Source of the DNA: Paramacrobiotus metropolitanus
Lineage: Eukaryota; Tardigrada; Eutardigrada; Parachela; Macrobiotidae
Direction of reading: 5' to 3'
DNA: 64,000 bases
Assembly (NCBI RefSeq): GCF_019649055.1
Contig: NW_026570296.1
Location: forward strand, 372,001-436,000
Shown here one piece after another: positions 5,105-50,190 of the stretch (positions within the stretch are counted from its first letter, which is position 1; each line of letters opens with the position of its first letter). The notes under the pieces are model-generated. The model was not told the origin of the DNA, made no database searches, and worked only from the letters and a program-made list of their open reading frames with translations. The position numbers and the translations under genes are program-made.

Positions 5105-6300
5105 GGTTTAACTCGCCACCGCACAAATCGTCAAAATAATGTAAAAATAATCCAAACTACAGCCAAAAGATTCTAAACGACGAAAGCGAAATTATGTAAA
5201 AGTGCTAGGCCTTAGACTTTCCGATCACAGGAATCAACGCTGACAAGAAGACCAGGGAATATTGCCGATTGAAAGTCCCAATTTGGAACTGATTTCGGGC
5301 TTTTTTCGTGTCGAATAATTTTAAAATGCAAGTGCAGTAGAACTAGTGTAAAACTATAGTCCGTTCTTACTGTGATCATTACAGCTAAGAACGGACTACA
5401 ACAAACAATAGAGAGCGCAGCCCACACGCAATTAACTGGGCAGCTGTTAACCAATCAAAACGTCCAGGAACTTTGCAGACAGACACTACTCTAGTCTGGG
5501 AAATCTGGGATTTCTGGCTTCGTGCGAGGTATCCTCGCCGAGGATTCCGATTTTCGTAAAGAACGACGAAATGAAATTCTAATTCTGCAGTCGATCCGGC
5601 GACCTTCGGTATTGATAGGCGACCTTCGGTATAGTCCCGTATAGATATGCCGCCGCCGCTGAATGACTATCAGTGTTTGCCCGTATACATATATATTATT
5701 TTTCCATTACTGTTTATTTTATTCATGTCAGTTCGGCGACAAAAAGCTATGCGTTTCTATAAAACTAATAAAAGTTAAACTATGCGCTGATTACACAGGC
5801 GCGAGCAGAAATATGCAGCCTAATTAACCAGAACATTCCGTCTAAATTAGCCAATGGTGCAGTGCAGTTCCGGCCGCGTTCCCATGCTGGATTTCGATGC
5901 CGATCTCGCTATGTTTCGCTTGTTTCCTGTCGTACCTTCTTCCCGAGCTCGGTGACAACGCGAGAAGCGTCCGGTCCGAATGGTTGGAGCGCTTCGACTA
6001 TTCGGACAATAGCATATTCTGAATGTATCCCATAATACAGATCTCCGTGACCTTTGTCTGCCGCTTAAAGTTTACACTATCTACAACTTACTAGTAAAAA
6101 TGCAATGGTACTGACGTGTACTGGCGTCCCTTAGTACACATCGGTACTACTTTACTACTTCTACCCCTACAACTAAGGCTTAGGCTTTACTACATCTTCT
6201 ACGCGAGTCCTGACCCCGAGTCTCTACTTCGACTTCTCAGAAATCCCCAGCAGAGAACTTTGACCGCGACTTGCCATTTCGACGTGACCGCGCTTCGATG
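5105..6300. other. Spacer upstream of copy B
   Basis: No gene was recognised. The stretch near 5970-6035 resembles 36650-36720, upstream of copy D, indicating that flanks were duplicated together with the genes. A hairpin is listed separately at 5357-5398. The CACGTAACAG motif of other copies was not found here. Confidence 0.4.
5357..5398. repeat. Inverted repeat (stem-loop)
   Basis: TAGTCCGTTCTTACTGT pairs with ACAG-C-TAAGAACGGACTA around a seven-base loop. The stem is about 17 bp with one bulged C. It lies 250 bases upstream of pseudogene B and has no known role. Confidence 0.6.
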
Positions 6301-6488
6301 ACGTAGCTCAACCTGTTGTTCTAGTGTATTAGTTGACCTGATGTTCTCATTAGTCCACGTGTAGTTGTGCAGCGGTGTGATTAGTCCACGTGTCCTCAGA
6401 TGTCTCTTATTGGCTAGAGTTTATATCCCTATTGTTCTCAGACCCGTACCTGCGTGTACGAAGAGCCAGCACCTGCGGTGCCCAGGGC

Positions 6489-6496
6489 TATATAAG
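6489..6496 (+). promoter_or_regulatory. TATA box in the putative 5' LTR
   Basis: TATATAAG sits about 600 bases before the presumed LTR end, in the position expected for the U3 promoter of an LTR element. GC-rich sequence follows. Confidence 0.45.
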
Positions 6497-7092
6497 GCGC
6501 TCGTCGCCCATAGAAATGTCAAGAGTTGTAATCCCAACAAAAGTATAGTCTTGTTACTCGATCTGATTAACTTCAGGCTTTTGCTCTGGTCTTCTCTTTC
6601 CAAGTGAGGCTGTTCAAACTGACCTCTGGGTGACCTTTCACCTATTGTCAGGGGTCATTCCTCTACTTCGTCGACGTGCATTATCATCTTCGGATAGTCT
6701 CGTGACGTAACAGGCTACCCACTTGATCCCACTTGTTTGCCTTGACCTTTCGGTCCCTTCGATCTTCATGCCCTGTAGTGCCAGGTTGATGGATTTGTCA
6801 TACTCATACGCTTCAGCTACCATCTAGCGTCGGACAGGTAACGTATGACTTCACGCATCCCTTGTGTTTCCTTTCGTGTCTTCTCTTTCAGCAGGCTTTC
6901 GAGTTCCGGATCCTCTTCTTCATCCTTGCATATCATCTCATACTTGTACATCAACATCCTTGAACTTTCGCTCCATGAAATACATAAGAAGTTGAGATTA
7001 AGAGTCGCTCTATTCCCCGACTGGTCGTGGTTTGGGAAGTGCATATTTCCACCGCACAACCGCCTTATTTTATTCAACTATATTGCACGACA

Positions 7093-7110
7093 TGGCGCCC
7101 ACCGTGGTTC
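7093..7110 (+). promoter_or_regulatory. Primer-binding-site-like sequence of the plus-strand element
   Basis: TGGCGCCCACCGTGGTTC follows directly after a CA dinucleotide (7091-7092) that would end the 5' LTR. The TGGCGCCC start is typical of tRNA primer-binding sites in LTR retroelements. The donor tRNA was not determined. Confidence 0.5.
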
Positions 7111-8135
7111 AAACTTTCCCGATGGAGCAGAAAGTTTAATTTAATTTGATAGTACAATTAAATTGATGGTGCAGGATGGTTGGTGGTCAACTCGAGAGAG
7201 CCCACATTTAAGAAAGTCCGTTAGGAGCCACTAGTGTGGTGCAGGAGGTCTGCGTTCCAGTACTGACCTAGGGTAACCGAGTCCCCCGGTTTGATTGATG
7301 TATAGATTGATTCGCACTTAGCGACATATATTTTGGGTGACAATACGGACTGAGAACAGTATAGGCACTTGAAAACTGTTCGTGTATGCGGCACTTTACG
7401 TGTCTATGATTGAAAAAGCACCGTAAGACCATTCGAGGTCAAAATTTCCTTTCAATTTATTTTCTTTTCTGAACCGGGCAAGCCAGAAAGACTACGTGAA
7501 TTTGAACGGCAGAACCAGCAGGATTAGCTGATCGGAAATTGTAAGTCAAACGTGCGAATATTCGCAACCTATTTTAGCCGTTCTTTGATACTGAACCTTC
7601 GTAAAAATGTTGAATTTTTGTAAATATGGCGTATCCGAGTTAGCGGAGTAGCCATCGTACTACGATTTTTGAAAATTTTCGGTAATCAACAGAGCAGATA
7701 TAGCTGTCTCTTGTTGTGAAACGCAGTGTCACTGTTAACTGGAAATCAGTCACAGTGTTGTAACTAGCGGTTAAATACGATTCGCAGTTGAAACCTTAAA
7801 GGTCAGCTGTAAATACGAGTTGCTCACTTACGCTTGAGTGCGTGTTGTAGCAACGAGATTCGTACGAGTTGGTTACGCATGCTTGAGTGTTTGCTGTAAC
7901 AACGAGACTTTCGGACGTGTTGTTTCGGTACCGCGGAAGTTGGTATTGAGTCAGCGTCGTCCTAACGAAACGGTGTCGTCAGGAGTCACAGCTTTGAGTA
8001 GCGTACGTGCATTTCTGTCAAGAGCCGTGGGTCATACGAGTTGGTTGATTCGTCAATCAACGGGAACAGTGTAACTTTCACTTTCTGAATCCAGTTGTAA
8101 TTGGTAAGGTTAGTCGCGGTTGCATTGCAAACAAA
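7111..8135 (+). other. Leader region of the plus-strand element
   Basis: This is an untranslated leader about 1 kb long. It includes a direct duplication near 7828-7916, where a block beginning GCTTGAGTG and continuing through GTAACAACGAGA appears twice with small changes. No convincing coding frame is present. Confidence 0.4.
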
Positions 8136-11100
8136 ATGTCAGAATTAGCAGATTTAACTGTGAAACGAGATGGCTTTTGGCCATTAAGAAAAGTTGAATC
8201 AGATAGATTGCAGTCGAAAGCTGTTGAAAGCGGGTTTGATACTCGTTTTCAGTTTCCGAAGAAAGTTCCCCTTGGCTTAATGTATAGGGCAGTAGGGTTA
8301 GAACCTCCGGAGAAAAAAAGCGCGTATTGCAGTCAACAATGGGTTGACTGGGAAGACAAAAATTCAACGTTGGTAAGAGCTCCGAGTTACTATAGCACTT
8401 GGTTCTCGCACGAACGGTCTATCCCGTCAGCTTATTTGAATATGTCAGAAGCAGAGTTTAAAGCAGCAAAAGAATGGGCGACCTTGAATGTCACTGCGTA
8501 CGAGGCAGAAGTTCAGCAAAGAAAGGAGTCAGGTACTGGTAAGAAATCTCGGGATACCATAGTTATGTCAGATGGGCAGCTAAATGCCTCGGTAATTATT
8601 GAGAATTCTGGGAATGCGGTAAGCGAGTCGTTGTTGGACTTGGAAGATAGTTCGGCTTCGAGTGCACAGAAAAATGGCATGACTCTGTCCAGTATGCAGT
8701 TGATTTCAAGCCAGTCAGTTGGTACGGTTAATCCTGGGAAACAGGTAACTCCGTCAGTGGTAAATCCAGATCAAGTGGTGGATCCGAGGAGATCGGTGAT
8801 GTCGCAACTGGTAATTCCACACTCAGTAGGGCAGTCAGTAAATGTGCAGAATACAGAAGTAGTTGGAAATGCAGTTGAAAATTTGAATTCGGTAGCGGTA
8901 GGGAACTTCGTGACTCCGTCCAATATGGCGAGAGAACGTAGTGCAGCGGCTCAAGTGAGCGATGAACGCGTGTTTACTATGAGTAATGATCAGAATAATA
9001 ATACGGTTGGCGGTAATATTACGATGAGAGAAGGAACTCCTTTTTCTGGAAATTCAGATGATGAAAATAATACGGCGTTTAATTGTGAAAAGTCATTATT
9101 GGATGAAGATATTCCTTTCGATGAAAATGTGAATAATCTTTTGCATCCTCTTCAGTCAGATTTGCGGCATTTCATTTTTGAAAATGATTTTGATCCTTTA
9201 AATCAGGAATTTGCGCAAGAAGTAAGTGAGGTGGACGCTAAGTTGAAAGCTTCAAAATCGGAGCAAGAGGCTTTAGCAGTCACTCGTGACTCATTGGGTA
9301 CTATGATTCGGTGTACGAAAAATTATGTTGCATTGTGTCTTAGGCAATTGCAAAATAGCGATGAGATTAATCGGTTGAATGAAATTTTGTCTAAAGACGA
9401 TAAATTGAAAAATAAATTACACGGTGATATTTCGGCTCTAAGGCAGCAGTTATTGGCAGTGCAGGCAAGTAATGCAGAACATGAGAAAAATGTTCGTGCA
9501 CTTTCGAGTAAGTGTCAGGTGAATGAAAAACGTATTCGCGATCTTGAGGAGGAAGATTCTCAGTCGTCGAAATTAATTTTGGAAAATCAGGAGCTTAGTG
9601 CTCAGTTGCGGTCAGTAAATGAACAGTTGCAGAAAATCAAGGCAGAAGCGTCGAAATCGCTTGGTTCGAGTAATTTGCAGGCCTTAGCTGTTTTCAAAGA
9701 AAATGAGAAGAAATTGCTTTTGGAAATTGAGCAGTTAAAAGTTAATTGTAAATTGGAATGTAATGCGAAAATTGTGGCGGAAAAAGATTTGAAATCAGCT
9801 TTGAGTAGGGAACGCAAGCTTAATGCAACGCTTGAAGAGAAAGAGAAATTAATTCATTCAGTTGGTGTCAGAATTGACGGTAAAGATTCCGAAATTCTTG
9901 ATTTAATCCAGCGTATGGAAAAATTGCGAGTTGAAGCAGAAGAATTGAAAGGTAATCAGATTTCGCATGAAAGGGAATGGAATTTTGAACCTGAGGTTCG
10001 TGTAGGTACGGGTAATTTGGCTTTTAATCAGCCACCGGCTTACAGTAATATTGCGCAGATGTCAGGTCAGTCTCAAGGTTTTATACCGAGCGGTACTCTG
10101 AATAATCATGGTAGCGGAAGCAGTCAGTTTTACGCGGGTAATTCAGTCGGTAGCGGCAGCAATCAAGTTTGCGGGGGTGAAAATTCTCTCCGAGTTCCCT
10201 CAGTTTCGCGTAATGACAGTGGTCAGTTAAACGAACCGAGATCAGATCAGCCTCGTTCGGCAGCGTCTCGTGTTAGGCATCAGTCGCAAGATAGGCGGCA
10301 TACGCAGGCGGTTAACGTAGGGCATGTTCCCTTGATTAATATTGAAATACCGGTAAATAACGGTATCGATGATGACGGTAATGTCGACAAGGAAGACGTG
10401 AATGCAGCGCCGGTCGGTGGTTTTGCTGCACAGCAGAATGCGAATCCAGATTGGCTTGGTGTGATCAAAATTATGGCGGAAGCGATGAAGAATGCAAACT
10501 CCAGCAAGCCGAGTAATGTGATGAAATTACAACCGTACGAAGGTAAGCGGAAGTCAGGTTCGATTGAACATTGGCTCACGCAAGTTGATCAGTGTCGATT
10601 GTCGAACGGATGGAGTGACAATGATACGTGCAGGCAAGTTGTTGGTGCATTGAAAGGTAACGCAGTATTATGGTTCCAAGGTTTACTTCGCGATAAACCA
10701 AATCGCGATTGGGAGAACTTTTATAAGAAAGAAATTCTTGAACATTTTAATATTGCGACGTCTCCAGCAGATATACGTAGGGAAATGACGGCAAGAATCT
10801 TTCGAGACGAAGATACAGTCGATAACTACGCGGATAGTTTTATTAAGTGGTTTAACGATTTGGAATTAGGCGATATCGAGAAAACTAGCATTTTGCTTGA
10901 AGGATTGAAAAGTAATAAGCCAGATTGGTATAGGCATTTATTTATCATGAATATTACTGATCCGTATGAATTGATTAAGCACATGAGAGAGTTGGAAAAA
11001 CTTCAGAATATTCTCGGTGGTGAGAAAAAGTCTCCTGAAACTCAGCGTGTAAGTGCAGGCGGTAACAATGGTTTCAGCGGATTTAGCAGCACTTTCAGAG

Positions 11101-11384
11101 GTGGCCGTGGTAACTATGGAAGTCGCGGTAATTATTCAGCGAGAGGTAATTCCTTCCGTGGTCAGTATTCAGGGCGTGGAAATTATTCACGTCAGTATGG
11201 TAATTTCGGTAATAATAATGGCGGTAACTGGAGTGGTCAGCCTGTTCAGATGGTTCCACCAGTTTATCAGAATCCGGTAGTTTTGCAGCAGCCTGTGTTG
11301 TCTTCTGTACAGCAACCAGTGTATGCTCCAGTTCAGATGTCGAATCCAGTGCAGATGTCAGATCAGCAGTCTTTTGTCAGATAG
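8136..11384 (+). CDS. Gag-like protein with long coiled-coil N-terminus
   Basis: The product is a single 1082-residue frame. Residues 1-135 form a Trp-rich globular-looking start (TVKRDGFWPLRKVESDRL). Residues 140-335 are Ser/Asn/Val-rich and probably disordered. Residues 355-610 are a heptad-rich coiled coil. Residues 793-960 match the retrotransposon gag capsid family (LQPYEGKRKSGSIEHWL, VGALKGNAVLWFQG). The tail, about 975-1040, is Gly/Arg/Asn-rich with RGG-type repeats, likely RNA-binding. Gag would form the particle and bind element RNA. It stops 18 bases before the next frame begins, and that frame lies in the -1 register. Length is about twice that of a usual Ty3 gag because of the coiled coil. 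Confidence 0.75.
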   Translation: MSELADLTVKRDGFWPLRKVESDRLQSKAVESGFDTRFQFPKKVPLGLMYRAVGLEPPEKKSAYCSQQWVDWEDKNSTLVRAPSYYSTWFSHERSIPSAYLNMSEAEFKAAKEWATLNVTAYEAEVQQRKESGTGKKSRDTIVMSDGQLNASVIIENSGNAVSESLLDLEDSSASSAQKNGMTLSSMQLISSQSVGTVNPGKQVTPSVVNPDQVVDPRRSVMSQLVIPHSVGQSVNVQNTEVVGNAVENLNSVAVGNFVTPSNMARERSAAAQVSDERVFTMSNDQNNNTVGGNITMREGTPFSGNSDDENNTAFNCEKSLLDEDIPFDENVNNLLHPLQSDLRHFIFENDFDPLNQEFAQEVSEVDAKLKASKSEQEALAVTRDSLGTMIRCTKNYVALCLRQLQNSDEINRLNEILSKDDKLKNKLHGDISALRQQLLAVQASNAEHEKNVRALSSKCQVNEKRIRDLEEEDSQSSKLILENQELSAQLRSVNEQLQKIKAEASKSLGSSNLQALAVFKENEKKLLLEIEQLKVNCKLECNAKIVAEKDLKSALSRERKLNATLEEKEKLIHSVGVRIDGKDSEILDLIQRMEKLRVEAEELKGNQISHEREWNFEPEVRVGTGNLAFNQPPAYSNIAQMSGQSQGFIPSGTLNNHGSGSSQFYAGNSVGSGSNQVCGGENSLRVPSVSRNDSGQLNEPRSDQPRSAASRVRHQSQDRRHTQAVNVGHVPLINIEIPVNNGIDDDGNVDKEDVNAAPVGGFAAQQNANPDWLGVIKIMAEAMKNANSSKPSNVMKLQPYEGKRKSGSIEHWLTQVDQCRLSNGWSDNDTCRQVVGALKGNAVLWFQGLLRDKPNRDWENFYKKEILEHFNIATSPADIRREMTARIFRDEDTVDNYADSFIKWFNDLELGDIEKTSILLEGLKSNKPDWYRHLFIMNITDPYELIKHMRELEKLQNILGGEKKSPETQRVSAGGNNGFSGFSSTFRGGRGNYGSRGNYSARGNSFRGQYSGRGNYSRQYGNFGNNNGGNWSGQPVQMVPPVYQNPVVLQQPVLSSVQQPVYAPVQMSNPVQMSDQQSFVR

Positions 11385-11401
11385 CGCAACAGCCAGGTAG
11401 T

Positions 11402-13204
11402 ATGGCGATGGCTCCGGTAAATAGCGGTCAGCCAGTTCAAAATTTTCAGCCTTTGCAGAATAATCAGAATATGATGAATTCACAGAATTTTCAGAATCAG
11501 GGTAATTTTAGGCAAATGGCGCCTATGAATAATTTTCGCGGACAGAATAATCTTAGACCGAGATTTCAGAACGGTAATAATTTTAATCGCGGCGGTTTGA
11601 ATGGAAATAATGGTAATGGAAATTTTCGTCCTCGGTTTAACGGTAATAATAATTTCGGTAACGGTGGTAGTAATTTCGGAAATAACGGCGGAAATTTTTC
11701 GAATGATATTCGAAATGATCAGCAGCAGAATAATGGTCAGTTTAATGAGAGTCAAATTCAGAGAGACAAGTGGAGATTGTCGAATGGTAGGGAAATCTGC
11801 TATAAGTGTCATGATCTACATGCAGCGTCAGCCTGTCAGCGACCCTTAGCGTTTCCTCGTCTGATTGAGCCTACCCTAGAAATGTTGCGACGTTATGGTG
11901 CGCAGGTAAATGTGATTGAATTCGAGTATATATGGCAGAAGAAACCAGCGCAGTGTAACACTACAGAAGTTATTGACATGTCGAAGTATCCAGCGTCAGA
12001 ATTGGTAATTCATAAGCCGACGTTAGACGCGCAGGCGTGGTACTGTACGATTGACGTGAATTACAAACAGGTTAAGGTCATGATCGATACAGGTTCGAGT
12101 ATTTCGATAATTCCCTTTCGGTTAGCGAAGAAGTTAGATTTGCATATTTTTCAATGTCCGAGTCATGTTAAGGGTATGTTGGTAAATACGGCATATAACG
12201 GTCAGCATGCGGTTGAACCTCTGTCGACCTTGATCACTATTCATGAATTTGATACGGCATTTGAGCATACGTGTTTAGTAAGCACAAATTGCGATCGTGA
12301 TCATATTATTTTGGGAATGGACTTTTTCGTCACGAAGCCTTTTATTTTGGACTTCAGTTCTATGACTTGGCGTATGATTCGTCAGAATTCGTTAGCCAAA
12401 CTACATGAGAATGCGTTAAGGAAGACTTGCGATATGGATGAGATTGTCAGAGAGCATAATTTCGTAGAGTTAGCTCCAGTGCATACGTATTATGGTAAGT
12501 CGATTCCGGCTTTAATGCAGGCGAACATGTTGGGTTTTGCTCCGTATGCGGAATTTCTTCCGTATAAGACAGCGCATAATGTGTACATCGGTGCACCAGT
12601 CGATATTTGTCAGATGGAAATGGATTATGCGGTGAGAAAATGGCCGAGAGTGTCAGATTCGATCTGTTATGCAGACGTAGATAATTCGGAATCTCAGTTG
12701 AGTAATAATCAGCAAGCAGGTGGCGGTAAGCAAGTTTGCGAGGGTGTATCTCAATCCACCGCCCAGCAGAGAGAAGTTACGGATAATTCGGCAGTAAATC
12801 GTAGTGTAAGGGATGCAGAATTAGCAGATGTTCGTAAGCGATATGATAAATTACTTGGTCATAATGATGAACCGGTAAGCGTGAGTAATCCGAATTTTCG
12901 CGGACAAAATAACGGCAGAATTTTTGAGGAAGAAGTTTTCAGTATTACGAATTCAGGTGAACAGCAAGTTTGCGGGGGTGTGTCTCAGCAAGTTTGCGGG
13001 GTAATTCTTTCTCAGCCGATAGCAGTACTAAGCAAGTTTGCGGGGGTGAAAATAAGCGTGAAAACGTACGCGGTAATGTTGAGAACGTGCATAGTTATGC
13101 GGCCCCACCCGCCCAAACCCTTCAGAATAATTCACAGAATAAGAGTATTGTGCAGCGACGTACTTTTCCTGATTCGAATATGGTTAAACGTAATCAGCAT
13201 TTGA
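11402..13204 (+). CDS. Asn-rich/zinc-knuckle-like/aspartic protease segment of the element polyprotein
   Basis: The frame opens with an Asn/Gln/Gly-rich region (residues 1-115). A Cys-rich motif CYKCHDLHAASAC follows near residues 133-145; it resembles a zinc knuckle but has three rather than four residues before the His. A retropepsin-type protease follows, with active site VMIDTGSSISIIP near residue 225 and the later ILGMDFF near 302. Open frame upstream of the ATG shows it probably continues from gag by a -1 shift rather than starting on its own. Its last stretch, from about 13000, is out of the likely native frame because one copy of a repeated motif has four G where its neighbours have five. 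Confidence 0.7.
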   Translation: MAMAPVNSGQPVQNFQPLQNNQNMMNSQNFQNQGNFRQMAPMNNFRGQNNLRPRFQNGNNFNRGGLNGNNGNGNFRPRFNGNNNFGNGGSNFGNNGGNFSNDIRNDQQQNNGQFNESQIQRDKWRLSNGREICYKCHDLHAASACQRPLAFPRLIEPTLEMLRRYGAQVNVIEFEYIWQKKPAQCNTTEVIDMSKYPASELVIHKPTLDAQAWYCTIDVNYKQVKVMIDTGSSISIIPFRLAKKLDLHIFQCPSHVKGMLVNTAYNGQHAVEPLSTLITIHEFDTAFEHTCLVSTNCDRDHIILGMDFFVTKPFILDFSSMTWRMIRQNSLAKLHENALRKTCDMDEIVREHNFVELAPVHTYYGKSIPALMQANMLGFAPYAEFLPYKTAHNVYIGAPVDICQMEMDYAVRKWPRVSDSICYADVDNSESQLSNNQQAGGGKQVCEGVSQSTAQQREVTDNSAVNRSVRDAELADVRKRYDKLLGHNDEPVSVSNPNFRGQNNGRIFEEEVFSITNSGEQQVCGGVSQQVCGVILSQPIAVLSKFAGVKISVKTYAVMLRTCIVMRPHPPKPFRIIHRIRVLCSDVLFLIRIWLNVISI

Positions 13205-16083
13205 TGGAGAGAGGAATTAATCAGCCAGCAGTTAATGGCGATAAAGCGGTTAATAATGGTAAATCTTTGACGATTGCGGGTAAGAAATTGAACGTAGTTC
13301 CGGTTGAACAGAATAACGGTAAGAGAGTGCCTGTTAAAAGTGCACAGTATAAAGTTGATTCGGATTGGAAACGTTGGATGATACCGAGACTTGATCCGGA
13401 AACGCGTGAGATGAAACCGAGTCTTGCGGATTTCAATAAGGTTACTTTTTGGCGAGCACAGCAGAGAGCGCAGGGTGACGCTAGGTGTTGGTATCATTTG
13501 TACTTAAATCCTCATAAGGCAGATACGAATTTCATTAAGGAGGAGATTAATTGGTTTACGATTTACGATGGAGTTTTGTGTCATAAGAATGAGGCGCGAG
13601 GCGCTAAACCACGTATTTTTGTACCGTATCATTGGCGTGTTAAACTAATTTTGGCAGTACATGCGGCAGTTAAGCATGAGAAAATTTTGAAAGATAATAC
13701 GACTTATCGTCTTTTGGTTGAAAAATTTTATTGGCCGAACATGCTAGTTGAAATTGATCATGTCGAGTCTAATTGCAAGTTCTGTTATCCTGAGCATCGG
13801 GATACACGTCCTCCGAGACATCCAGATCCGGCAAGTAATGAGTACTTGCAGTCAGATATGTCGAAAGATGAAGTTGCGACTTGGGTTGATCCGAAATACA
13901 CGAATAAGTTCGCGGTATTGCAAGGAGAAACTGGAGATTTTGTAAATGGAAAATTTGTACCGGCTGAAGGCAATTACGATGTTGACCTTGGTAAGGCACC
14001 TGTCTCAGCGGAAGACCAGCGTGCTATGGCGAGAGCTATTTCTCGAGTGGATTTTGACGGTCCTATTCAGGTAAATAGACCAGGAGTAATACGAGATCCG
14101 TTACCGAGTAGTTTTACGGATACGATCCAGCGGAATAGAGTAGATGCGGCGTATAAGAAGTGCGATAAGCCGACGAAGACTAAGAAAAAGGGTAAGAAAG
14201 TGACATTTTCAGGAATAGCACCGGCAGATGATGATGAGTGGTCAGTTCCACCTGTTCAGTCGAATGTTAAGCAAAACGTTAGACAGTCCAATGTTGAGAA
14301 GAGAAATCTTCGGAATGGGTCTGTTCCTCGGAATGAGTCTGCTTTTCGGAATGAGCCTATCTTTGAGTTGAACAAAACGGTACCTGCGGTGAGCGGTGAA
14401 ACGGCACGTCTTGTGAATGAAGCGGCAACGAAGCAGAATAAACCGGCAGTTAATTTTTGTGCTATGGAAGTTTTTCCTCAATTCGCAGTTGATATTAAAC
14501 CTCGGTCCAAAGGTGTGATCCGTGCTCGCATAAATAAGTCTGAATCTGAAATTGCTGAACTGGTGAGAAATGGTTTGGTTGAGCAAAATTTTGAGTATGA
14601 AGGTAAACGGTTTGGCAATTTGCTTCTGTTTGACGGTGTGATTGATGTTAATGAAAATGGGTGTTTGCGTATTGCTGTGATGAATCTGTCGGATAAAACG
14701 GTGCAAATTGGCAGTAATCTATTTCTGGGTGAATTAGATCCTATTGACAAAATTTATGCGGTTGGTTCGGATAAATTCAACAATAACTTTCATGATGCAG
14801 TTTGTACTATTGCCAAAAATTGCGAGTGTTGGGCGAAAAAACTCGTTAATAGGAAAGTAGGTGTCGATAATATTGACCGAGATACGGAGGAAATGGTCAG
14901 TAAACTCGAGTCTAAGCACTTAGTCTCCGATTCCACTTTTGGAACTCCTGCGGTGATTGTGCAGAGGAGTAACGGGTCAGTAAGTTTAACTGACGATTGG
15001 CGGAAATTATCGCATAGGATAAAAGACTTACCTAAGCGAGAGTGTCAGGTAGCCACTATGGAAACAAAGAAGGCCGTTAGTACTGAAGCAGTAAAGGTTA
15101 GTAGTGGACCGCCAATTCAGAACGGTAGGCAGGAAATCGATATTAGTATTGAAGGCATGTTCGAGAGTGTGCCCGAATCAGAACTAAATATAGTAGTCCT
15201 GGGAAGACAAAAGGTCGAAGAAACTGTGCCGATCCCGGCAGTACAGGCGATTAAGGAAGTTGTTTCAGTACCGGTAATTCAGATTCAGAAATCAGTAGAA
15301 ATTAATACGGCAACTATGAAGCGTTTAGCAGATTTTAGTAAATTAGGGTTAGTACCTCAGTATCCGATTGAAATTCAGCCGAGAAATAGGGGAGTTATAC
15401 GTGCTCGTATTAATAAATTCGGAAGTGAATTAGCAGAATTAATTAAGGGCGGATTATTGGAACAAAATTTCGAATATGAAGGTAAAAATTGCGGTCTATT
15501 ATTGTTTTGTGACGGTATTGTTAAGTTTGATGAAAATGGTTATTGCGGTATAATTGTTGTGAATAATTCGGACGAATCAGTAGATTTATCTGAAAATTTT
15601 TATTTGGGAAATGTTGTCCCGGTTGAAGAAATTTATTCAGAAGGCGAAAACTATTATGAAGATGATTTTCACGATGTTGTTTGTAAAAAGTTACAGGCAT
15701 GTGAGTGTAACGCAGTTAATATTTTTAATGAAAGAAATGGTGCTAATAGTATCTGCATTAAAACTTCGAATGCTTTTTGTAACAATGGAAAGTCAGTCTG
15801 TATTGTTAAAGATAGTAAGGGAATACATAAAGTAGCGGACGACATCCATCTAGCCGTTTCCTTTTGCGCTGACGGCATCCACATAGCCGTTGCAGTGGTC
15901 ACATTCACTGCAGTACCATTCTGCAGTGGTGACCTTTCCCTTTTATCCGGTGGTTTAGGGTCGGGTCGATCAGTAGGCTCACCGGTGCCTACTGATCTTG
16001 CCCGTTTCCCTGAACCGGCGCACCACCTTGTTGTACGCCCTGGACATTTCCCTGTTGTTGTCCGTTACCATTTGCCGGGTTAG
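12970..16083 (+). CDS. Polyprotein segment with integrase-type HHCC finger and duplicated spacer module
   Basis: The native frame appears to be entered near 13000. An HHCC zinc finger of integrase type spans residues 229-271 (VHAAVKHEK, then CKFC). Two similar modules follow at about 505-600 and 795-890 (KGVIRARINKSESEIAELVR; RGVIRARINKFGSELAELI). They resemble the beta-rich segment that precedes reverse transcriptase in Ty3 elements. No YxDD polymerase motif or DDE core is visible. From about nucleotide 15840 the frame runs into unrelated sequence belonging to the opposite-strand element, so the last 75-80 residues are not native. Confidence 0.6.
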   Translation: MRGCVSASLRGNSFSADSSTKQVCGGENKRENVRGNVENVHSYAAPPAQTLQNNSQNKSIVQRRTFPDSNMVKRNQHLMERGINQPAVNGDKAVNNGKSLTIAGKKLNVVPVEQNNGKRVPVKSAQYKVDSDWKRWMIPRLDPETREMKPSLADFNKVTFWRAQQRAQGDARCWYHLYLNPHKADTNFIKEEINWFTIYDGVLCHKNEARGAKPRIFVPYHWRVKLILAVHAAVKHEKILKDNTTYRLLVEKFYWPNMLVEIDHVESNCKFCYPEHRDTRPPRHPDPASNEYLQSDMSKDEVATWVDPKYTNKFAVLQGETGDFVNGKFVPAEGNYDVDLGKAPVSAEDQRAMARAISRVDFDGPIQVNRPGVIRDPLPSSFTDTIQRNRVDAAYKKCDKPTKTKKKGKKVTFSGIAPADDDEWSVPPVQSNVKQNVRQSNVEKRNLRNGSVPRNESAFRNEPIFELNKTVPAVSGETARLVNEAATKQNKPAVNFCAMEVFPQFAVDIKPRSKGVIRARINKSESEIAELVRNGLVEQNFEYEGKRFGNLLLFDGVIDVNENGCLRIAVMNLSDKTVQIGSNLFLGELDPIDKIYAVGSDKFNNNFHDAVCTIAKNCECWAKKLVNRKVGVDNIDRDTEEMVSKLESKHLVSDSTFGTPAVIVQRSNGSVSLTDDWRKLSHRIKDLPKRECQVATMETKKAVSTEAVKVSSGPPIQNGRQEIDISIEGMFESVPESELNIVVLGRQKVEETVPIPAVQAIKEVVSVPVIQIQKSVEINTATMKRLADFSKLGLVPQYPIEIQPRNRGVIRARINKFGSELAELIKGGLLEQNFEYEGKNCGLLLFCDGIVKFDENGYCGIIVVNNSDESVDLSENFYLGNVVPVEEIYSEGENYYEDDFHDVVCKKLQACECNAVNIFNERNGANSICIKTSNAFCNNGKSVCIVKDSKGIHKVADDIHLAVSFCADGIHIAVAVVTFTAVPFCSGDLSLLSGGLGSGRSVGSPVPTDLARFPEPAHHLVVRPGHFPVVVRYHLPG
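15968..15997. repeat. Perfect stem-loop spanning a stop codon
   Basis: GATCAGTAGGC and GCCTACTGATC form an 11-bp stem around the loop TCACCGGT. The TAG stop of the minus-strand gag gene (15991-15989) lies inside one arm. An effect on stop readthrough or frame change into pol is possible but unproven. Confidence 0.6.
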
Positions 16084-19000
16084 GATTCTGTCCGTTTCCC
16101 ATGTTCTGGCCGCCACCATTATTTTGTCCGCCACCCTGTTGGTAGTTTCCTTGGCCACCTCCGTTTCCGCCGCCTTGGTTATTGCCGTAGTTCCCGCGGC
16201 CATAGCCTCTGCCTCTTCCTCTGAAGCCGCCGCGGCCGTAGCCACCACGGCCGTAGCCGCCATTCTGGCCACCGCCATTTCCATTTCCGTAGTTCCCATT
16301 TCCGTTCCCTTGGTGGTTTTGGAAGTTTGCTTTGTGCTGGTACCATTGGGCGATAAGGTCATATCCGTTATTCACCGCTAGGCGCCAACCACCAAGTCCG
16401 CGCAGTCGTTGCCATTCGTTAAAGGCGAACAGGTTCGGGTTCTGGTCCGGTGGTGTGTTGGCGAATTTGCATCCCTGGGTCTGGTGGTTGCCGTACATAC
16501 AATACTGGCACATTTGCACTCCGTTTGCCACCCATCCATCAATCAACTGGAACTTGAATTCCGTCCGTGACCCTTGATTCTGCTGAAAGTTATTCTGATT
16601 TCCTCTGTTTGGCTGGAAGTTGCCTTGACCTTGACCTTGATTCTGATTCTGGAAGTTCCCTCGACCTCCGTTCCAATTTCCATTTCTGTAACCATTTCCA
16701 CCGAAATTTCCATTGCCCACTCCCTGTTGTGGTAACCCTACATTCATAGGGGCCACATTCTGTGGTACCTGTGGGGCCGCATTCTGAGGTGCTGGCCTCG
16801 CTTGAGCGGCCACCTGTACCGCCGCCGCTTGTATTGCTGCAACCATTGCATCGGCAAGCGTGACCTCCTTTATGACTTCTTGAGCCGGGTTTGTCCTGCG
16901 GTATTCCGGTGGCTGCTGAACTGGCGCCACTGCCATCCTCTGTTGTGGCATATCTTCAACTTGGCCGGTACGAATTGTCACATAGTCTTGATTGCGTTGA
17001 CCTTTAGGCGCTTTATACTTTTCTTCTCCTGCTGACCAATGTCTGAAGAAATCTTTAATTTCGGTCGGTGTTCTGCACTGTTGCGTACGCAGTGCCTTAT
17101 AAAGGTCACTGTCCACTCTGCATCCTTCAATCAGGAAACCGACTGCTTGTTTTTCAGTGATAATCCGCTTCGCCTTGTATTTCATGATCGCTTGATAAAA
17201 CTGATCAAGCGATTCTTTTCCAAGGTCGAATTTCCTTGCCATGGCTTCTCGTAGGCCGAGGACTTCTTCGTCACGGTCACCGTATTCATCTTTGAACTTG
17301 TTCATCCATTCTGTTACAGTGTATTCAGTTTCTTCTTGGAGTGCAATTTCTCTCTCTCCTTCAAACCAGATTTTTGCCGGTCCTTTCACCGCGCTGGCTA
17401 TCTCAATTAGGATCTGGTCATCGGTAAGGTGATACGTTCGCTGGGTATCCCTAACCAATTGGGTCCACCCATTCACGGCATCGCGACTTCCATCAAAGGT
17501 CACCAGAGTCGTTTTGCGTCCCATCGATTTGAGCGCATTTGCCAATTGCTCCGATGCTGATTGTCCTCTCTGGTCATCTTCCTCTTCGCTACCGTCGTCG
17601 TCGTTTTGGTTTCGTTTCACCTTTTCATAACGAGACTTTCGTGGGCGTTCTTGCCGGCTAGACGGTCTATCTCTATGTCTTTCATCAATGAACACGTTTG
17701 TTTCGATATGTGGGGGAAACTGTGAAGGGTCACCTCGACTCATATGCGGGTAGCTTTCTGAAGGTGGCTCTTTGTCATCTTTGACCTTTTCACCGTCCCT
17801 TTCATTTTTGACGCTTCCTTTGCCGGTACCGGTTCGTAGCGGCATGTCAAAGTGGAAACTTTTACTCGTGCCCGTTTCATGCGCCTTGCTGTAACTGGGC
17901 GGCGGTGATTCCACTGTTGTTGTCCTGACTCCATATTGCAGCAGCTGTTCATCTTTGTGTTTGTTCGACATGTTGAGCGCCTTATTTTCATCTTCAAGGC
18001 GTCTGATCTTCAACTGGAATTCCTCCTTCTCGGTTTTTAGGCTCTGGTTCTCCTCGTTGACCTTTAGCATATGCTGATGCAGCTGGAAAGTCTTCTCCTG
18101 AACGACCTTTTCAGTGTCATTCTCCACCCTTTTAATGTGTTCCGCCAGTCGGGTCACATCCCTTTCCAACGTCGTGTATTCCTCAGCTGCTGTTTTCAGC
18201 TGATTCTTGGTTGCAATCAACTCATCATCTTTCGCCAGTGCTGTAGTGGTCATCTCGAGCAGTTCAGTATTCAGCTTTGTGACTTCTTGGCTCTTTTGGG
18301 CGACTTGTTGTTGCCATTCTTTGTCCTTCAGCTCTAATGCTGTGACCATCGTATCCAGTCGCCTTGCTTCCTTTTGCCACTTAAGCCCTTCCTTTGTGAC
18401 CTTTTGAATATCTGCAGTGACCTTTTCATTTTCGTCGTTGACCTTTTTAATCTCTTCTTTCAACTTTTGTCCTTCTATTGCAGTGAGGTCTCTCGCATCG
18501 CGCATCGCTTTGGTTATCTCGTTGCGTAGCCTTTCGGCTTCGTCAGCACGTTCCTGATGACCTTTCGACTCATTTTCCAGGGTGCTGATGGCTTCGTCTC
18601 GTAGCTTCAGGTCATTTCTGAGTTTGAATGTCTCTGTAGCCAGCGTTGTCAATCGTTGTGTGACTCCCGCGAGGTTGGCCGCGTACTCGTCCCGCTTTGC
18701 CTCCGCTTCGGTGACCTTTTGGCGTAATTGGTCACATTCGTTCTTCAATTCAGCTAAGTGCCGTGACCTTTCCGCCGACTCTTCCGACATACTCTCGTTA
18801 AGGTCACTGACTGCAGGATGACCTTCCATTTCTCTGTCATCTACCATTTTCAGATATTCCTCAGCGAGTTCTTTTTGACGCTCGTATTTGATTTTCCATT
18901 CATCCGCTGTGCTTTCCAAATAAGCCTGTTGTTGCTCCAATTCGTAAATACGAGCGTTAAGAGACCCCGTCTGGTTATGGTATTCCTGTCTCCTTTTCAT

Positions 19001-19771
19001 CACCAGACCTTCCTTAACTTCAAGTTCCTCTTCCAACTCCTTCACGCGTCTTTTCAGAGTTGACGTGGGACTGTTCGGTGACGGTGGTCGTACATTGATG
19101 ACCTTTCCTGTTTGTGTCCGTTCGATAAGGTGCTCTGGTATCTCTTTGAAAGGTGTCATCCCTTCAGCACGGTCAGCTTGTCTCATCGCAGATTCGAAGG
19201 ACATATGCATCGTCGCTTCATCATCCGCGAAGTATGACTCGTTCGATTCGTCTGAGACCATTGGAGTTGCCCAAAGGTCATCGCCTGCGGTCTTATCGTT
19301 CAGTGAAAGGTCATCCAGACCCAGTTCAGCGAGTTCTTCTTCGGTGACCTTTGTCTTATCAACTTCCATTTGAGTCAGGTTCACGTTTTTATCCTGCTCA
19401 TTGGTGGTAGCATCCGACTGTGATGCTCCAACTGGTTCCGCTCTTCTTTTTGTGGGCTTATCCTCCCCGGTGACCTTTATCTGGTTCATCGGATGACTTC
19501 CCGCCGCAGACGCGGGAGTATGCTTCTGGTCGTCACTCGAACTTTCCTGGTTGGCGACCGCCTCGAGCGCCTTCTGATAAGTGCTATCAGAGCCTCGCGA
19601 ATCCTTCTTCTCGAATGCTTTAGGCGCTCGAGTGTTCCGCTCATGTCCGACTGGACGTGAGTACGTGTGAAAATCCCTTTCGTATGGGTTTGGTGCACCT
19701 TGCCGTGAGCTGCGGGAGCTTTTGCTTCCCTGACTGCTGTTAGATGTCGGTTCTTCTTTGTCTTTATCCAT
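15989..19771 (-). CDS. Coiled-coil gag-like protein with CCHC knuckle and RGG tail
   Basis: The product is an uninterrupted 1260-residue frame. Residues 1-230 are charged and disordered. Residues 235-630 are a long coiled coil (VKELEEELEVKEGLVMKRRQ). A gag capsid-like region spans about 755-915 (LVTFDGSRDAVNGWTQLVRD, AVKGPAKIWFEGE). Near 1085-1100 a clean CCHC knuckle reads CQYCMYGNHQTQGC. The tail is Gly/Asn-rich with RGG-type repeats (GRGGYGRGGFRGRGRG). The layout parallels the plus-strand gag at 8136-11384, so they are distant relatives. After the stop, a -1 frame stays open to about 15845 and looks like the beginning of pol before the junction. AGGTCA-containing words occur more than 20 times in the coding region. 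It could be an active element gag or a host-retained gag; the sequence does not decide. Confidence 0.75.
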   Translation of the reverse strand: MDKDKEEPTSNSSQGSKSSRSSRQGAPNPYERDFHTYSRPVGHERNTRAPKAFEKKDSRGSDSTYQKALEAVANQESSSDDQKHTPASAAGSHPMNQIKVTGEDKPTKRRAEPVGASQSDATTNEQDKNVNLTQMEVDKTKVTEEELAELGLDDLSLNDKTAGDDLWATPMVSDESNESYFADDEATMHMSFESAMRQADRAEGMTPFKEIPEHLIERTQTGKVINVRPPSPNSPTSTLKRRVKELEEELEVKEGLVMKRRQEYHNQTGSLNARIYELEQQQAYLESTADEWKIKYERQKELAEEYLKMVDDREMEGHPAVSDLNESMSEESAERSRHLAELKNECDQLRQKVTEAEAKRDEYAANLAGVTQRLTTLATETFKLRNDLKLRDEAISTLENESKGHQERADEAERLRNEITKAMRDARDLTAIEGQKLKEEIKKVNDENEKVTADIQKVTKEGLKWQKEARRLDTMVTALELKDKEWQQQVAQKSQEVTKLNTELLEMTTTALAKDDELIATKNQLKTAAEEYTTLERDVTRLAEHIKRVENDTEKVVQEKTFQLHQHMLKVNEENQSLKTEKEEFQLKIRRLEDENKALNMSNKHKDEQLLQYGVRTTTVESPPPSYSKAHETGTSKSFHFDMPLRTGTGKGSVKNERDGEKVKDDKEPPSESYPHMSRGDPSQFPPHIETNVFIDERHRDRPSSRQERPRKSRYEKVKRNQNDDDGSEEEDDQRGQSASEQLANALKSMGRKTTLVTFDGSRDAVNGWTQLVRDTQRTYHLTDDQILIEIASAVKGPAKIWFEGEREIALQEETEYTVTEWMNKFKDEYGDRDEEVLGLREAMARKFDLGKESLDQFYQAIMKYKAKRIITEKQAVGFLIEGCRVDSDLYKALRTQQCRTPTEIKDFFRHWSAGEEKYKAPKGQRNQDYVTIRTGQVEDMPQQRMAVAPVQQPPEYRRTNPAQEVIKEVTLADAMVAAIQAAAVQVAAQARPAPQNAAPQVPQNVAPMNVGLPQQGVGNGNFGGNGYRNGNWNGGRGNFQNQNQGQGQGNFQPNRGNQNNFQQNQGSRTEFKFQLIDGWVANGVQMCQYCMYGNHQTQGCKFANTPPDQNPNLFAFNEWQRLRGLGGWRLAVNNGYDLIAQWYQHKANFQNHQGNGNGNYGNGNGGGQNGGYGRGGYGRGGFRGRGRGYGRGNYGNNQGGGNGGGQGNYQQGGGQNNGGGQNMGNGQNPNPANGNGQQQGNVQGVQQGGAPVQGNGQDQ

Positions 19772-19844
19772 GTTGATCGGATAACTTGGACGCTCCTGCC
19801 AATTGTTCTCACAAACACGTTATTGTATGGTTTATTCAATTGTC

Positions 19845-20460
19845 CTAAAGGTCACTTTCGTTCTGTGAAATTTTCTAAGTCCTTAGTAAAGGTCACTTTT
19901 CGATTGAAAAATTTCGACTAAGTCCCGTTTAAAGGTCACTTTTTCGATAAAAAGTTCGAGAGATTTGCCCTAAAAGCTCACTTTCGGACAAAACTTCGAA
20001 ACCGCTTTTACAGTTCAGAGCACGTTAGCGAATAAGATCCTACAGCTGCTGGTATCGCTGTACTACTAATCAACTCAATTTCGACTTCGTTAAAGGTCAC
20101 TGTTGGTTGCTTTCAGATCATAAAGGTCACTTTAATAGGTCAATTTGGTCAATTCCAACTTTTTAGTAAAGGTCACTTTCCGAATCTCAAAGGTCAACTT
20201 CTGGTCGTAAAGGTCACTTTCATACTCGTCTTAACTCACAAGGTCACTTCCCAACACGATTTAAGTTAAAAGGTCACTTTCCCGCTCAATTCAATCAAAG
20301 GTCACTTTTCCTTTGTTTCAACTCAAAAGGTCACTTCTCAACTCGATTTAAGCTAAAAGGTCACTTTCTAGCTCAATTCACTCAAAGGTCACTTTTCCTT
20401 TGTTTCAACTCAAAAGGTCACTTCTCAACTCGATTTAAGTTAAAAGGTCACCTTCCCGCT
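19845..20460 (-). repeat. Leader array of AAAGGTCAC repeats
   Basis: About 16 copies of plus-strand AAAGGTCAC(T), including one or two variants, are spaced roughly 25-45 bases apart. At 20240-20460 they form a higher-order tandem repeat of about 90 bases (three AAAGGTCAC words each). On the sense strand of the minus-strand gag gene this reads GTGACCTTT, all in one orientation. The array lies between the putative TATA box and the ATG, so it is probably transcribed leader. Confidence 0.8.
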
Positions 20461-20539
20461 CAATTATCTCATCTCAAATCAAATTTCCCATTACGACTCG
20501 AGTTCAACGGAAAATCCCCATTCGGGTTGTTTACTTCGT

Positions 20540-20760
20540 TCTGATTGGTCCGCTAGCTCAGAATATTCAGCTCAAATTTCGGCCAATCACAGCTCAGATA
20601 ACTAACCAATCACGTCAGTCCACTTAAATTTTATATTAGCCTGACGTCACGGTCAACGGCCAGACATACGCGCCGTGTGCAAAACTCCGCCTACATCTAC
20701 GCTCAGCTCAGTACGGACCAATGAAAATTGCCAATTTTACTAACTAGCCAATCCCGTAAT
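20540..20760 (-). promoter_or_regulatory. Putative promoter with CCAAT boxes, full CRE and TATA
   Basis: CCAAT or ATTGG pentamers occur at least five times (near 20545, 20582, 20605, 20720 and 20750). A perfect palindromic CRE, TGACGTCA, is at 20642-20649. Read on the minus strand, ATATAAAA (20636-20629) follows the CRE by a few bases. Transcription toward the minus-strand gag would start near 20600. Whether this lies in an LTR is unknown, as no second copy was seen. Confidence 0.5.
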
Positions 20761-21020
20761 TAATAACGGTTTTCTACCTGTTAACCGTCCGTCCGTTCCG
20801 CGTTCCACGGGGAATCGATCCAGATGATCCAGATTCTTCTTCCACTATCCGTTCCCGCGTCGCCGCTGTTCCGTAGCGTGCCTCGCGCTATTGGTAGGCT
20901 ACTGTGCCGGCTGTGCCGTAGCAACAGTAGTTATACGCTCTACACCAGTTTGGTGGAGTCTGATCTGTCTTTTTCCCGTGCGCCCGTTTCGGCGTTTCGG
21001 CGCTTCTGCCCCACGGCTTA

Positions 21021-21165
21021 GGATTCGCTGAATCCTTGCCGAGTACCAATGACACCAGTGTAGGTCTTCGCTGAAGACTCTACACCGAGGAACACTGGCG
21101 ACTGAACTCTTGCACTCTTTCACAGCTAAGGAAACAGCACGGTTCTTCGCTGAAGATACCGTACC
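21021..21165. repeat. Three related triloop hairpins with compensatory changes
   Basis: GGATTC-GCT-GAATCC (21021-21035), a GTCTTC-GCT-GAAGAC stem extended by GTGTAG/CTACAC (about 21057-21084), and ACGGT-TCTTC-GCT-GAAGA-T-ACCGT (about 21142-21163) share the GCT loop. They differ in the stem yet keep pairing. The second and third both carry a single unpaired T on the 3' side. Confidence 0.6.
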
Positions 21166-21756
21166 GAAAACCGAAGCTGGTTATCCGCGTCCGATGGAGG
21201 GAAATTGCACCGCTTGTGGTGTGCGCTTTGCTGTTGTACACACCTGTGCCTTACTGGTCACAGAAAACACGTCCGATAACAGGCCAACTTTGCCTGACAC
21301 AAATCAAATCAATTCAAATCAGAGAACCGCTGTCGGCTCTGCTACCATCTAAAGCTAGATCCAGAATGGATCCAGAGACGGAGACAGAAACGGAATCTAT
21401 CCCGTGGAAGTGAGCGATACGACCTGGATCGCGAACTATGCGGAAACACAAACGTCGCGCCGTAAATCGCTGACTTTTAATAATATTGAAAGTCTGCACA
21501 ACAGAAATCAACAAGTGATCGGCGCAGCTCGATCGTAAAACGTAGAGCCCGTTCAACAGTGTGCAACACTGTGCAGCACGTGCTATGCCGCGCCCACTAT
21601 CAAAACGCAAGCCAATCAGAAGAGACACAACACAGACACGTAATCCAAAGGCGTAGCGCCACAGGCGTAGCGCCACTGACGTGAACGCTAGTGATCCCGG
21701 TCTCACACCATCTATTCAGTTTGCTGCAAATCTGACTACTCACCTTCTGAATGAAG

Positions 21757-49389: not shown

Positions 49390-50190
49390 AAAATCACTGG
49401 ACGAGTGAGTGACCGAAACACTATCACCGACCGCTGAGCGGAATCTCTAGATGAGTGGGTGACCGAGCTACCACCACTGACCAGTAAGAAAAATCACTAG
49501 ACAAGTGAGTGACCGAAACACCTTTACTGCCCACTGAGCGGAATTTCTAGGTGAGTGAGTCATCGAGCGGGCTTTGTTCTTGCTCGGTCACATCCTCACC
49601 TAGCGATTTTTCTCCTTACCTAGCGATATTTCTTACTGGACAGGTTGAGCTCGGTCAGTCACTCACCTAGTGATTGAGTGCGTCAGAAAATCGCTAGGTG
49701 AGTACGTGACCGAGCTACCACCACTGTCCAGTGCCCAGAACCCGTTAGGTGAAAGAGTACCGAGATACCACTACTGTCCAGTGCACAAACTCCGCTAAGT
49801 GATCTAGTGACCGAGCTACCAATACTGTCTAGTGCATAGATCCCGTTAGGTAGATGGGTGACCGAGCTGCCGATACTGTCCAGTGCATAGATCCCGTTAG
49901 GTAGATGGATGACCGAGCTACCAATACTGTCCAGTGCATAGATCCCGTTAGGTAGATGGGTGACCGAGCTACCAATACTGTCCAGTACACAGAGCCCGTT
50001 AGGTGAACGCGTGACCGAGCTACCACTACTGTCCAGTGCACGAACTCCGTTAAGTGATCTAGTGACCGAGTTACCAGTACTGGCCTTTGCATAGATCCCG
50101 TTAGGTAGGTGGGTGACCGAGCTACCAAAGCTATCCAGTGCACAGAGCCCGTTAGGTGAACGTTATGACCAAACTGCAATATTACTGAGC
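49390..50190. repeat. Minisatellite, 51-base unit, with related GTGAGTGACCGA region
   Basis: From about 49730 to 50180, nine units of about 51 bases each contain CCCGTTAGGTAGATGGGTGA, CCGAGCTACCAATACTG and TCCAGTGC. The preceding 49390-49700 is a looser array of GTGAGTGACCGA and CTAGGTGAGT words on both strands. The 51-base period keeps a minus-strand frame open (137 residues), which is taken as chance. Confidence 0.8.

What the first reader, a model, noticed from the sequence alone, without database searches (positions are those of the whole stretch)
15989..20460. The word AGGTCA saturates a gag gene in all three reading frames and its leader
In the minus-strand gag coding region AAGGTCA or its complement appears more than 20 times; a random 7-mer would be expected about 0.23 times per strand in 3.8 kb. 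It is read as Lys-Val-Thr/Asn, as Lys-Gly-His/Gln and as Arg-Ser at different sites, so the DNA or RNA word itself seems favoured rather than a peptide. About 16 more copies fill the leader. AGGTCA is also the nuclear-receptor half-site (established knowledge).
Basis: seen in the sequence. Interest (0 to 1): 0.8.

Follow-up and report, generated by a model that had tools for sequence, protein, structure and literature searches.

The report
Retrotransposon saturated with one switchable word
A large family of animal jumping genes carries the same eight-letter DNA word over and over through its leader and protein-coding regions on both strands, and one branch has another word instead, which suggests a private address label read by a DNA-binding protein.

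Summary
The window copy is a truncated Ty3/gypsy-type LTR element (window 21707-15840, minus). AAAGGTCA and its complement are the two most over-represented 8-mers of its gag; 0 of 5000 codon-preserving shuffles reach the counts. Sixteen of 21 gag copies compared (window included) show the same excess. So do pol, a third long ORF and the leader; the stretch examined of one 5' LTR has none.

Both orientations are enriched in coding DNA (x9-16 and x20-100), word codons are synonymously conserved (203 of 237; 139 expected), and most sites differ between the two worded lineages. The other five copies, subfamily D, have 0-1 copies in gag. Subgroup D1 carries a different word, GAGATCR, in leader, gag and pol.

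I read this as a dsDNA recognition code under selection, re-spelled in one branch. The best candidate reader is the element's own ORF3 (about 1,650-1,850 aa), whose C-terminus has a borderline linker-histone-like match. The closest known system is VANDAL/VANC anti-silencing in Arabidopsis; a host nuclear receptor is the main rival. No binding was tested.

The parts
15840..21707 (-). Truncated copy of a Ty3/gypsy-type LTR element: 5' LTR start at 21707; homology to longer copies ends at 15840, next to a plus-strand element
   Evidence: blastn of L004, L009, L036, L035 against the window; L036 and L035 share the same LTR start
20684..21707 (-). 5' LTR start and the following sequence matched by L036 (88.5% over about 1 kb). 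The LTR's inner end was not determined. No AAAGGTCA/TGACCTTT here
   Evidence: word positions
19847..20450 (-). Leader array: 15 TGACCTTT (sense), 10 of them as AAAGTGACCTTT, spaced 28-30 bp in its main block; none in the other orientation
15989..19771 (-). gag CDS, 1260 aa; 12 AAAGGTCA and 4 TGACCTTT in sense; AGGTCA occurs in all three frames. No Pfam hit at E 0.01
17012..17563 (-). Capsid-like piece of gag (named by position and by its matches, not by a domain hit) used to find 150 scored genomic matches, 57-100% identity
16469..16510 (-). CCHC zinc knuckle CQYCMYGNHQTQGC of gag (aa 1088-1101); the four D copies shown have CQNCGFGN..AQNC
   Evidence: motif read by eye
15840..16064 (-). Start of the pol frame, overlapping the gag end (open frame 15669..16064), cut off at 15840
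   Evidence: assignment to pol is inference
18397..18446 (-). Example cluster of three coding words read as K-V-N, K-V-T, K-V-T

Best explanation
The element family carries a distributed double-stranded DNA recognition code. The site, AAAGGTCA followed by C/T (sometimes A, almost never G), is repeated through the internal region: arrayed in the leader, dense in one copy's post-integrase DNA, and planted at synonymous or tolerated positions in gag, pol and ORF3. Selection on the DNA maintains it. A sequence-specific DNA-binding protein recognises the element by the density of these sites, most likely to keep its chromatin open, i.e. sequence-specific anti-silencing of the kind known for VANC proteins. 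Shown: enrichment, both orientations, synonymous conservation, site turnover, the different word of D1, and the existence and long open frames of ORF3.
For: Codon shuffles. Both orientations enriched when word codons are left out of the codon pool: gag ABC x13/x37, gag E x11/x39, pol L021 x16/x71, ORF3 ABC x12/x100, ORF3 E x9/x20; the antisense figures rest on 59, 21, 5, 4 and 1 sites. Word codons synonymously identical in 203 of 237 cases against 139 expected (five ABC pairs) and 58 of 74 against 32 (three ABC-E pairs). Only 7 of 23 ABC site columns and 7 of 24 E columns coincide. D1 word GAGATCG: gag 24 against 4.1 (three copies), pol 12 against 3.1 (two copies), and frequent in leaders. A leader site before gag keeps TGACCTTT in one D1 leader (L014), one ABC leader (L008) and, less surely, one E leader (L019), compared by eye, so the old word looks ancestral. 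ORF3: open frames of 1,640-1,848 aa in 9 of 10 loci read, 1,652 in the tenth, which starts inside; 6 of 9 C-terminal domains hit Pfam Linker_histone at E up to 1, best 4.1e-6; of 4 scanned, two pass the cut-off (27.2 and 24.9 against 22.4 bits). Same base excluded 3' of the word in leader, coding sense, coding antisense and 3' DNA. Three comparison ORFs from two other elements in the window show no such word.
Against: No binding, chromatin or expression data. The linker-histone match is borderline: two of four domains fall below the cut-off, no linker histone is among PDB matches to E 1, hhalign with the host's own H1 gives probability 1.7% and P 0.03, and the genome search at E 0.001 lists only the host H1. 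Linker histones bind with little sequence specificity (recalled). The D1 word is weaker (x3-8 in gag and pol) and weak in D1 ORF3 (x0-4); D2 has no clear single word. Leader words of ABC and E are all in one orientation, which orientation-free binding does not require. Word codons are also conserved somewhat beyond expectation between ABC and D, which lacks the word (58 of 110 against 44, z 2.8), so shared ancestry explains part of the conservation. D-specific replacements in ORF3 do not visibly cluster (by eye); those in gag lean towards the zinc-knuckle region (p 0.025, region chosen after looking), which would favour Gag as reader. The C9 copy keeps only a remnant of ORF3 yet is full of words; that fits only if ORF3 acts in trans. 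ABC-E comparisons rest on a 42-45% identity alignment.
Confidence: 0.5

Rival explanations
1. Host transcription-factor sites: the element is an enhancer or insulator platform for a host nuclear receptor (NR4A/ERR/FTZ-F1 type) that binds AAAGGTCA, as gypsy uses Su(Hw).
For: AAAGGTCA is the NBRE monomer site (recalled). The host genome has 63 zf-C4 exon matches. Gypsy carries 12 host-factor sites in its 5' UTR (PMC2374998, passages).
Against: D1 carries GAGATCR instead in leader, gag and pol. The 3' flanking base is constrained, which a receptor monomer does not need (recalled). Saturating pol and a third ORF is unlike the leader-only gypsy array.
Confidence: 0.25
2. RNA-level code: the word and its complement pair within or between genomic RNAs, or Gag's zinc knuckle reads them as dispersed packaging signals.
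For: In the 16 worded copies the leader has only UGACCUUU, while body words are mostly AAAGGUCA, hence complementary. D-specific residue changes lean to the zinc-knuckle region.
Against: Both orientations are enriched inside the coding regions and occur in one copy's DNA outside recognisable genes (17 sense, 6 antisense). D1 leaders hold both orientations (7.0 and 4.7 GAGATC per copy), so leader-body complementarity is not kept. A single-strand reader would not select the complement within the same RNA. Pairing itself was not modelled.
Confidence: 0.15
3. Mutational or gene-conversion origin: a biased process keeps making or spreading AAAGGTCA without selection for function.
For: The leader array grows by tandem duplication (29-bp steps in L004).
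Against: Coding words sit at synonymous or tolerated positions in protein alignments and are conserved beyond codon-matched expectation. They are absent from the LTR stretch examined and not enriched in neighbouring elements. The word-rich C9 3' stretch is not a tandem array of the word.
Confidence: 0.07
4. Codon usage, repeated peptide or composition artefact.
For: Lys-Val-Thr runs raise the codon-shuffle expectation above chance for the sense word.
Against: 0 of 5000 codon shuffles; three frames; both strands; three genes; different word in D1.
Confidence: 0.01

Closest known systems
VANDAL DNA transposons and their VANC anti-silencing proteins (Arabidopsis)
   Same: A short (8-9 base) word accumulated at high density within one element family, arrayed in one orientation in tandem repeats, differing between related families; element-encoded protein with highly variable regions (PMC5735166, passages; PMC10398659, abstract)
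   Different: Those are DNA transposons of a plant and the words sit mainly in non-coding regions; coding probes lack them and bind poorly. Here an animal LTR retrotransposon carries words throughout coding DNA in both orientations. No VANC homology tested; no binding shown
gypsy insulator, Su(Hw) sites (Drosophila)
   Same: Array of about a dozen short sites in the leader of a Ty3/gypsy element (PMC2374998, passages)
   Different: Host-factor site, a different word, confined to 340 bp of 5' UTR; here the body is saturated too and one subfamily has another word
NBRE / nuclear-receptor half-site AGGTCA (recalled)
   Same: The 8-mer AAAGGTCA is identical
   Different: Constraint extends to the 3' base, and the related subfamily D1 uses GAGATCR
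Ty3/gypsy LTR retrotransposons (Metaviridae)
   Same: LTR, gag, PR-RT-RH-IN order
   Different: 17.5 kb between LTR starts in the one copy measured, gag near 1,260 aa, and an extra ORF3 of about 1,650-1,850 aa after integrase

Membership tests
Ty3/gypsy LTR retrotransposon | PR-RT-RNaseH-IN domain order | tested here: met
   Pfam on L021, L024, L035
Ty3/gypsy LTR retrotransposon | Flanking long terminal repeats | tested here: met
   L036:1395 and L035:4844 share 158 bp at 100%, one copy; LTR length not determined. For four other copies the pieces held showed no LTR pair, but did not reach both LTRs for certain
Ty3/gypsy LTR retrotransposon | tRNA primer-binding site | not tested
   -
VANDAL/VANC-type anti-silencing system | Short word enriched in one element family, other elements lacking it | tested here: met
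   (three comparison ORFs from two elements of the window only)
VANDAL/VANC-type anti-silencing system | Word differs between related subfamilies | tested here: met
   AAAGGTCA in ABC and E, GAGATCR in D1; D2 unclear
VANDAL/VANC-type anti-silencing system | Words mainly in non-coding tandem repeats | tested here: not met
   Leader array fits, but gag, pol and ORF3 are saturated as well
VANDAL/VANC-type anti-silencing system | Element-encoded protein that binds the word and removes silent marks | not testable with these tools
   Only a candidate, ORF3
VANDAL/VANC-type anti-silencing system | Homology to VANC proteins or a Mutator-like transposase | not tested
   No VANC sequence was compared; this is an LTR element, so membership is not claimed
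Nuclear-receptor response element | Bound by a zf-C4 receptor | not testable with these tools
   zf-C4 exons exist in the host; no binding data
Linker histone H1/H5 globular domain (ORF3 C-terminus) | Profile match above curated cut-off | tested here: inconclusive
   Above cut-off in L049 and L048 (27.2 and 24.9 against 22.4 bits), below it in L042 and L045; 6 of 9 members match at E up to 1 (9 of the 10 loci were given, L047 left out because its frame departs near the end); no linker histone among PDB matches to E 1; hhalign with host H1 P 0.03
gypsy-type insulator | Su(Hw) consensus YRYTGCATAYYY in the leader | not tested
   The leader repeat unit is AAAGTGACCTTT; no scan for the Su(Hw) consensus was run

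The most novel reading that the evidence does not exclude
An animal LTR retrotransposon family has evolved its own address code: a 9-bp word spelled dozens of times through leader and genes on both strands, read by the element's own third protein (with a linker-histone-like DNA-binding end), and re-spelled wholesale when a subfamily's reader changed specificity. This would be an independently evolved counterpart of VANC anti-silencing, written into protein-coding sequence.
Probability: 0.4. Interest if true: 0.92.

Novelty: new variant of a known kind. Interest (0 to 1): 0.8.

Why it matters
It shows selection on DNA words strong enough to shape synonymous choices across three genes of a retrotransposon, and a change of word between subfamilies that runs through leader and genes. 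If a self-encoded reader is confirmed, sequence-specific self-recognition by transposons is not a plant DNA-transposon peculiarity but a strategy that also arose in animal LTR elements, and protein-DNA recognition could be studied by natural co-variation of word and reader.

Tried and rejected
Peptide or codon artefact: rejected by shuffles. Word confined to gag and leader: rejected. Rooting with the plus-strand element's capsid: the outgroup branch is too long, so the order of ABC, D and E is unresolved, and D1 and D2 do not separate cleanly on that short piece. Locating a specificity region by D-only residues: nothing visible in ORF3, weak and post hoc in gag. I first took the D2 copy in C7 and the C9 copy to lack ORF3; one search showed other D2 copies have it, and one search found a remnant in C9 (L035 2735-3342). 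Linker-histone match: kept as suggestive only. PF00105 search: shows receptors exist, decides nothing. Searches for a published description (titles and abstract starts in the listings) showed none of this element or word; that is no proof of absence.
Full report
Observation. The gag CDS (window 19771..15989, minus) holds AAAGGTCA 12 times and TGACCTTT 4 times in sense. Codon-preserving shuffles average 1.24 and 0.13, and 0 of 5000 reach the counts. Scanned against 1000 shuffles, the word and its complement are the top two of all 8-mers. The leader has 15 TGACCTTT and no AAAGGTCA in sense, 10 of them as AAAGTGACCTTT, at 28-30 bp steps in the main block. In the whole window, 32 of 38 8-mers fall in the element.

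What carries it. A capsid-like piece found 150 scored matches of 680 first-look candidates in the 170-Mb genome. I fetched leader plus gag for 20 of them, chosen for long open frames and spread of identity, and gag regions of 6 more. With the window, 16 of 21 show the excess (13 to 19 observed per gag, about 1 expected) and 5 of 21 do not. L003 was counted from a later Met. Of the 6 later ones, L031, L032 and L034 hold 13, 25 and 23 words and L029, L030, L033 hold 0, 1 and 0 over the whole locus; in these six the frames are broken, and in L032 the word is not among the top six k-mers listed for its two ORFs of 250 aa or more, its words lying mostly outside them. The element has LTRs, Ty3/gypsy-order protease, RT, RNase H and integrase, and after integrase a third long ORF with no Pfam hit above cut-off over most of its length, open for 1,640-1,848 aa in 9 of the 10 loci read and 1,652 in one that starts inside. 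The C9 copy has 17.5 kb between LTR starts; in place of ORF3 it has word-rich DNA with a short ORF3 remnant. Genome-wide there are 42,584 AAAGGTCA against 15,540 of the reversed control, and 1,297 of the 12-mer AAAGTGACCTTT against 116; how much of this excess lies in the family was not measured.

Extent within the element. Pol of L021: 35 words against 2.77 expected, Poisson p 2e-26; part of pol of L022: 13 against 0.69. L023 was fetched too and holds 20 and 2, none after position 3722; it was not put through shuffles. ORF3: 11.0 against 0.86 (mean of three ABC copies) and 14.0 against 2.0 (three E copies). Post-integrase DNA of C9: 22 sense, 7 antisense, of which 17 and 6 lie outside the ORF3 remnant; the 5' LTR stretch examined: none. 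Three comparison ORFs in the window (two of the plus-strand element, one copia) show no k-mer of this strength; their best p is 3e-5.

Properties. Leaving word codons out of the codon pool, AAAGGTCA is enriched x9-16 and TGACCTTT x20-100 in gag, pol and ORF3; the antisense figures rest on 59, 21, 5, 4 and 1 sites. The base 3' of the word is almost never G (1%, 1%, 0%, 0% in leader, coding sense, coding antisense, 3' DNA). Word codons stay synonymously identical in 203 of 237 cases between five ABC pairs against 139 codon-matched, 58 of 74 against 32 between three ABC-E pairs, and 58 of 110 against 44 between four ABC-D pairs. The last is smaller but not nil (z 2.8), so shared ancestry contributes. 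ABC and E share 7 of 23 and 24 site columns, so sites turn over.

The switch. Subfamily D (56-61% gag identity to ABC; E is 42-45% from ABC and 41-43% from D) lacks the word in gag (0,1,0,0,0) and nearly so in the leader (3,3,0,0,2). In D1 the top gag 7-mer, CGATCTC/GAGATCG (8.0 per copy, 1.35 expected), is also the second commonest leader 7-mer. GAGATCG and GAGATCA are enriched in D1 gag (24/4.1, 14/4.9; three copies, two of them 93% alike) and pol (12/3.1, 24/5.7; two copies), weakly in ORF3. D1 pol keeps a residue of the old word (7 against 1.1). A leader site before gag reads TGACCTTT in L014 (D1), L008 (ABC) and, less surely, L019 (E), while L016 (D2) reads tgatctcc at what looks like the same place, all by eye. 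I take AAAGGTCA as ancestral; the tree itself does not root this. D2 shows several weakly enriched related words and no single one.

Mechanism. Orientation-free, frame-free enrichment in genes and outside them, a nine-base footprint, conservation and turnover all point to double-stranded DNA sites for a sequence-specific protein (inference). Because leader, gag and pol of D1 all carry the other word, one reader is the simplest common cause (inference). Element-encoded candidates are ORF3 and the Gag zinc knuckle. ORF3 evolves faster than gag (ABC-D 38-45%, ABC-E 27-29%). Its C-terminal 155 aa gives linker-histone hits in 6 of 9 copies at E up to 1, with two of the four above the curated cut-off, but PDB, hhalign and whole-genome searches do not confirm it. 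D-specific residues are mildly concentrated near the zinc knuckle (p 0.025, chosen after looking). I therefore rate ORF3 first, Gag second, and a host nuclear receptor as the main outside rival.

Comparison. VANC21 of VANDAL21 binds a nine-base word arrayed in one orientation within its own elements, and VANC6 has other words (PMC5735166, passages; PMC10398659, abstract). The present case works like that in pattern, but in an animal LTR element and inside coding sequence; membership is not claimed. Gypsy's Su(Hw) array (PMC2374998, passages) resembles only the leader. Literature searches listed nothing describing this element.

Noticed in passing
L041-L050: ORF3, open for 1,640-1,848 aa in 9 of 10 loci, after integrase; two alpha/beta-looking repeats (module A, by eye) and a linker-histone-like C-terminus; possibly a new kind of accessory protein in LTR elements
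   Followed up: partly
L035 2076-4843: The C9 copy keeps only an ORF3 remnant (2735-3342) amid word-rich DNA, next to a matching LTR start (100% over 158 bp): perhaps a non-autonomous derivative served in trans
   Followed up: partly
window 8049-16083, plus strand: Second Ty3-like element: long gag and a protease, weak integrase zinc-binding hit, no RT hit in the three ORFs scanned; converges on and abuts the finding's copy at about 15840
   Followed up: partly
L025 437-2125: In the E-type gag-pol linker a second word, AAGTAACT, is also over-represented (10 against 0.73)
   Followed up: no
pol of L021, L026, L027, L028: CAGTACCA recurs in pol of ABC and D copies (7 against 0.30 in L021; 4, 4 and 6 in the others), probably from a repeated peptide
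   Followed up: no
window 49706-50157: 51-bp tandem repeat, about 9 copies
   Followed up: no
window 31119-34510, minus: Copia-type element in two ORFs (named by eye, no family search run)
   Followed up: no
window 4383-7798: Five stray AAAGGTCA/TGACCTTT words upstream of the plus-strand element, with no blastn match of 120 bp or more to the 16 family loci compared
   Followed up: no
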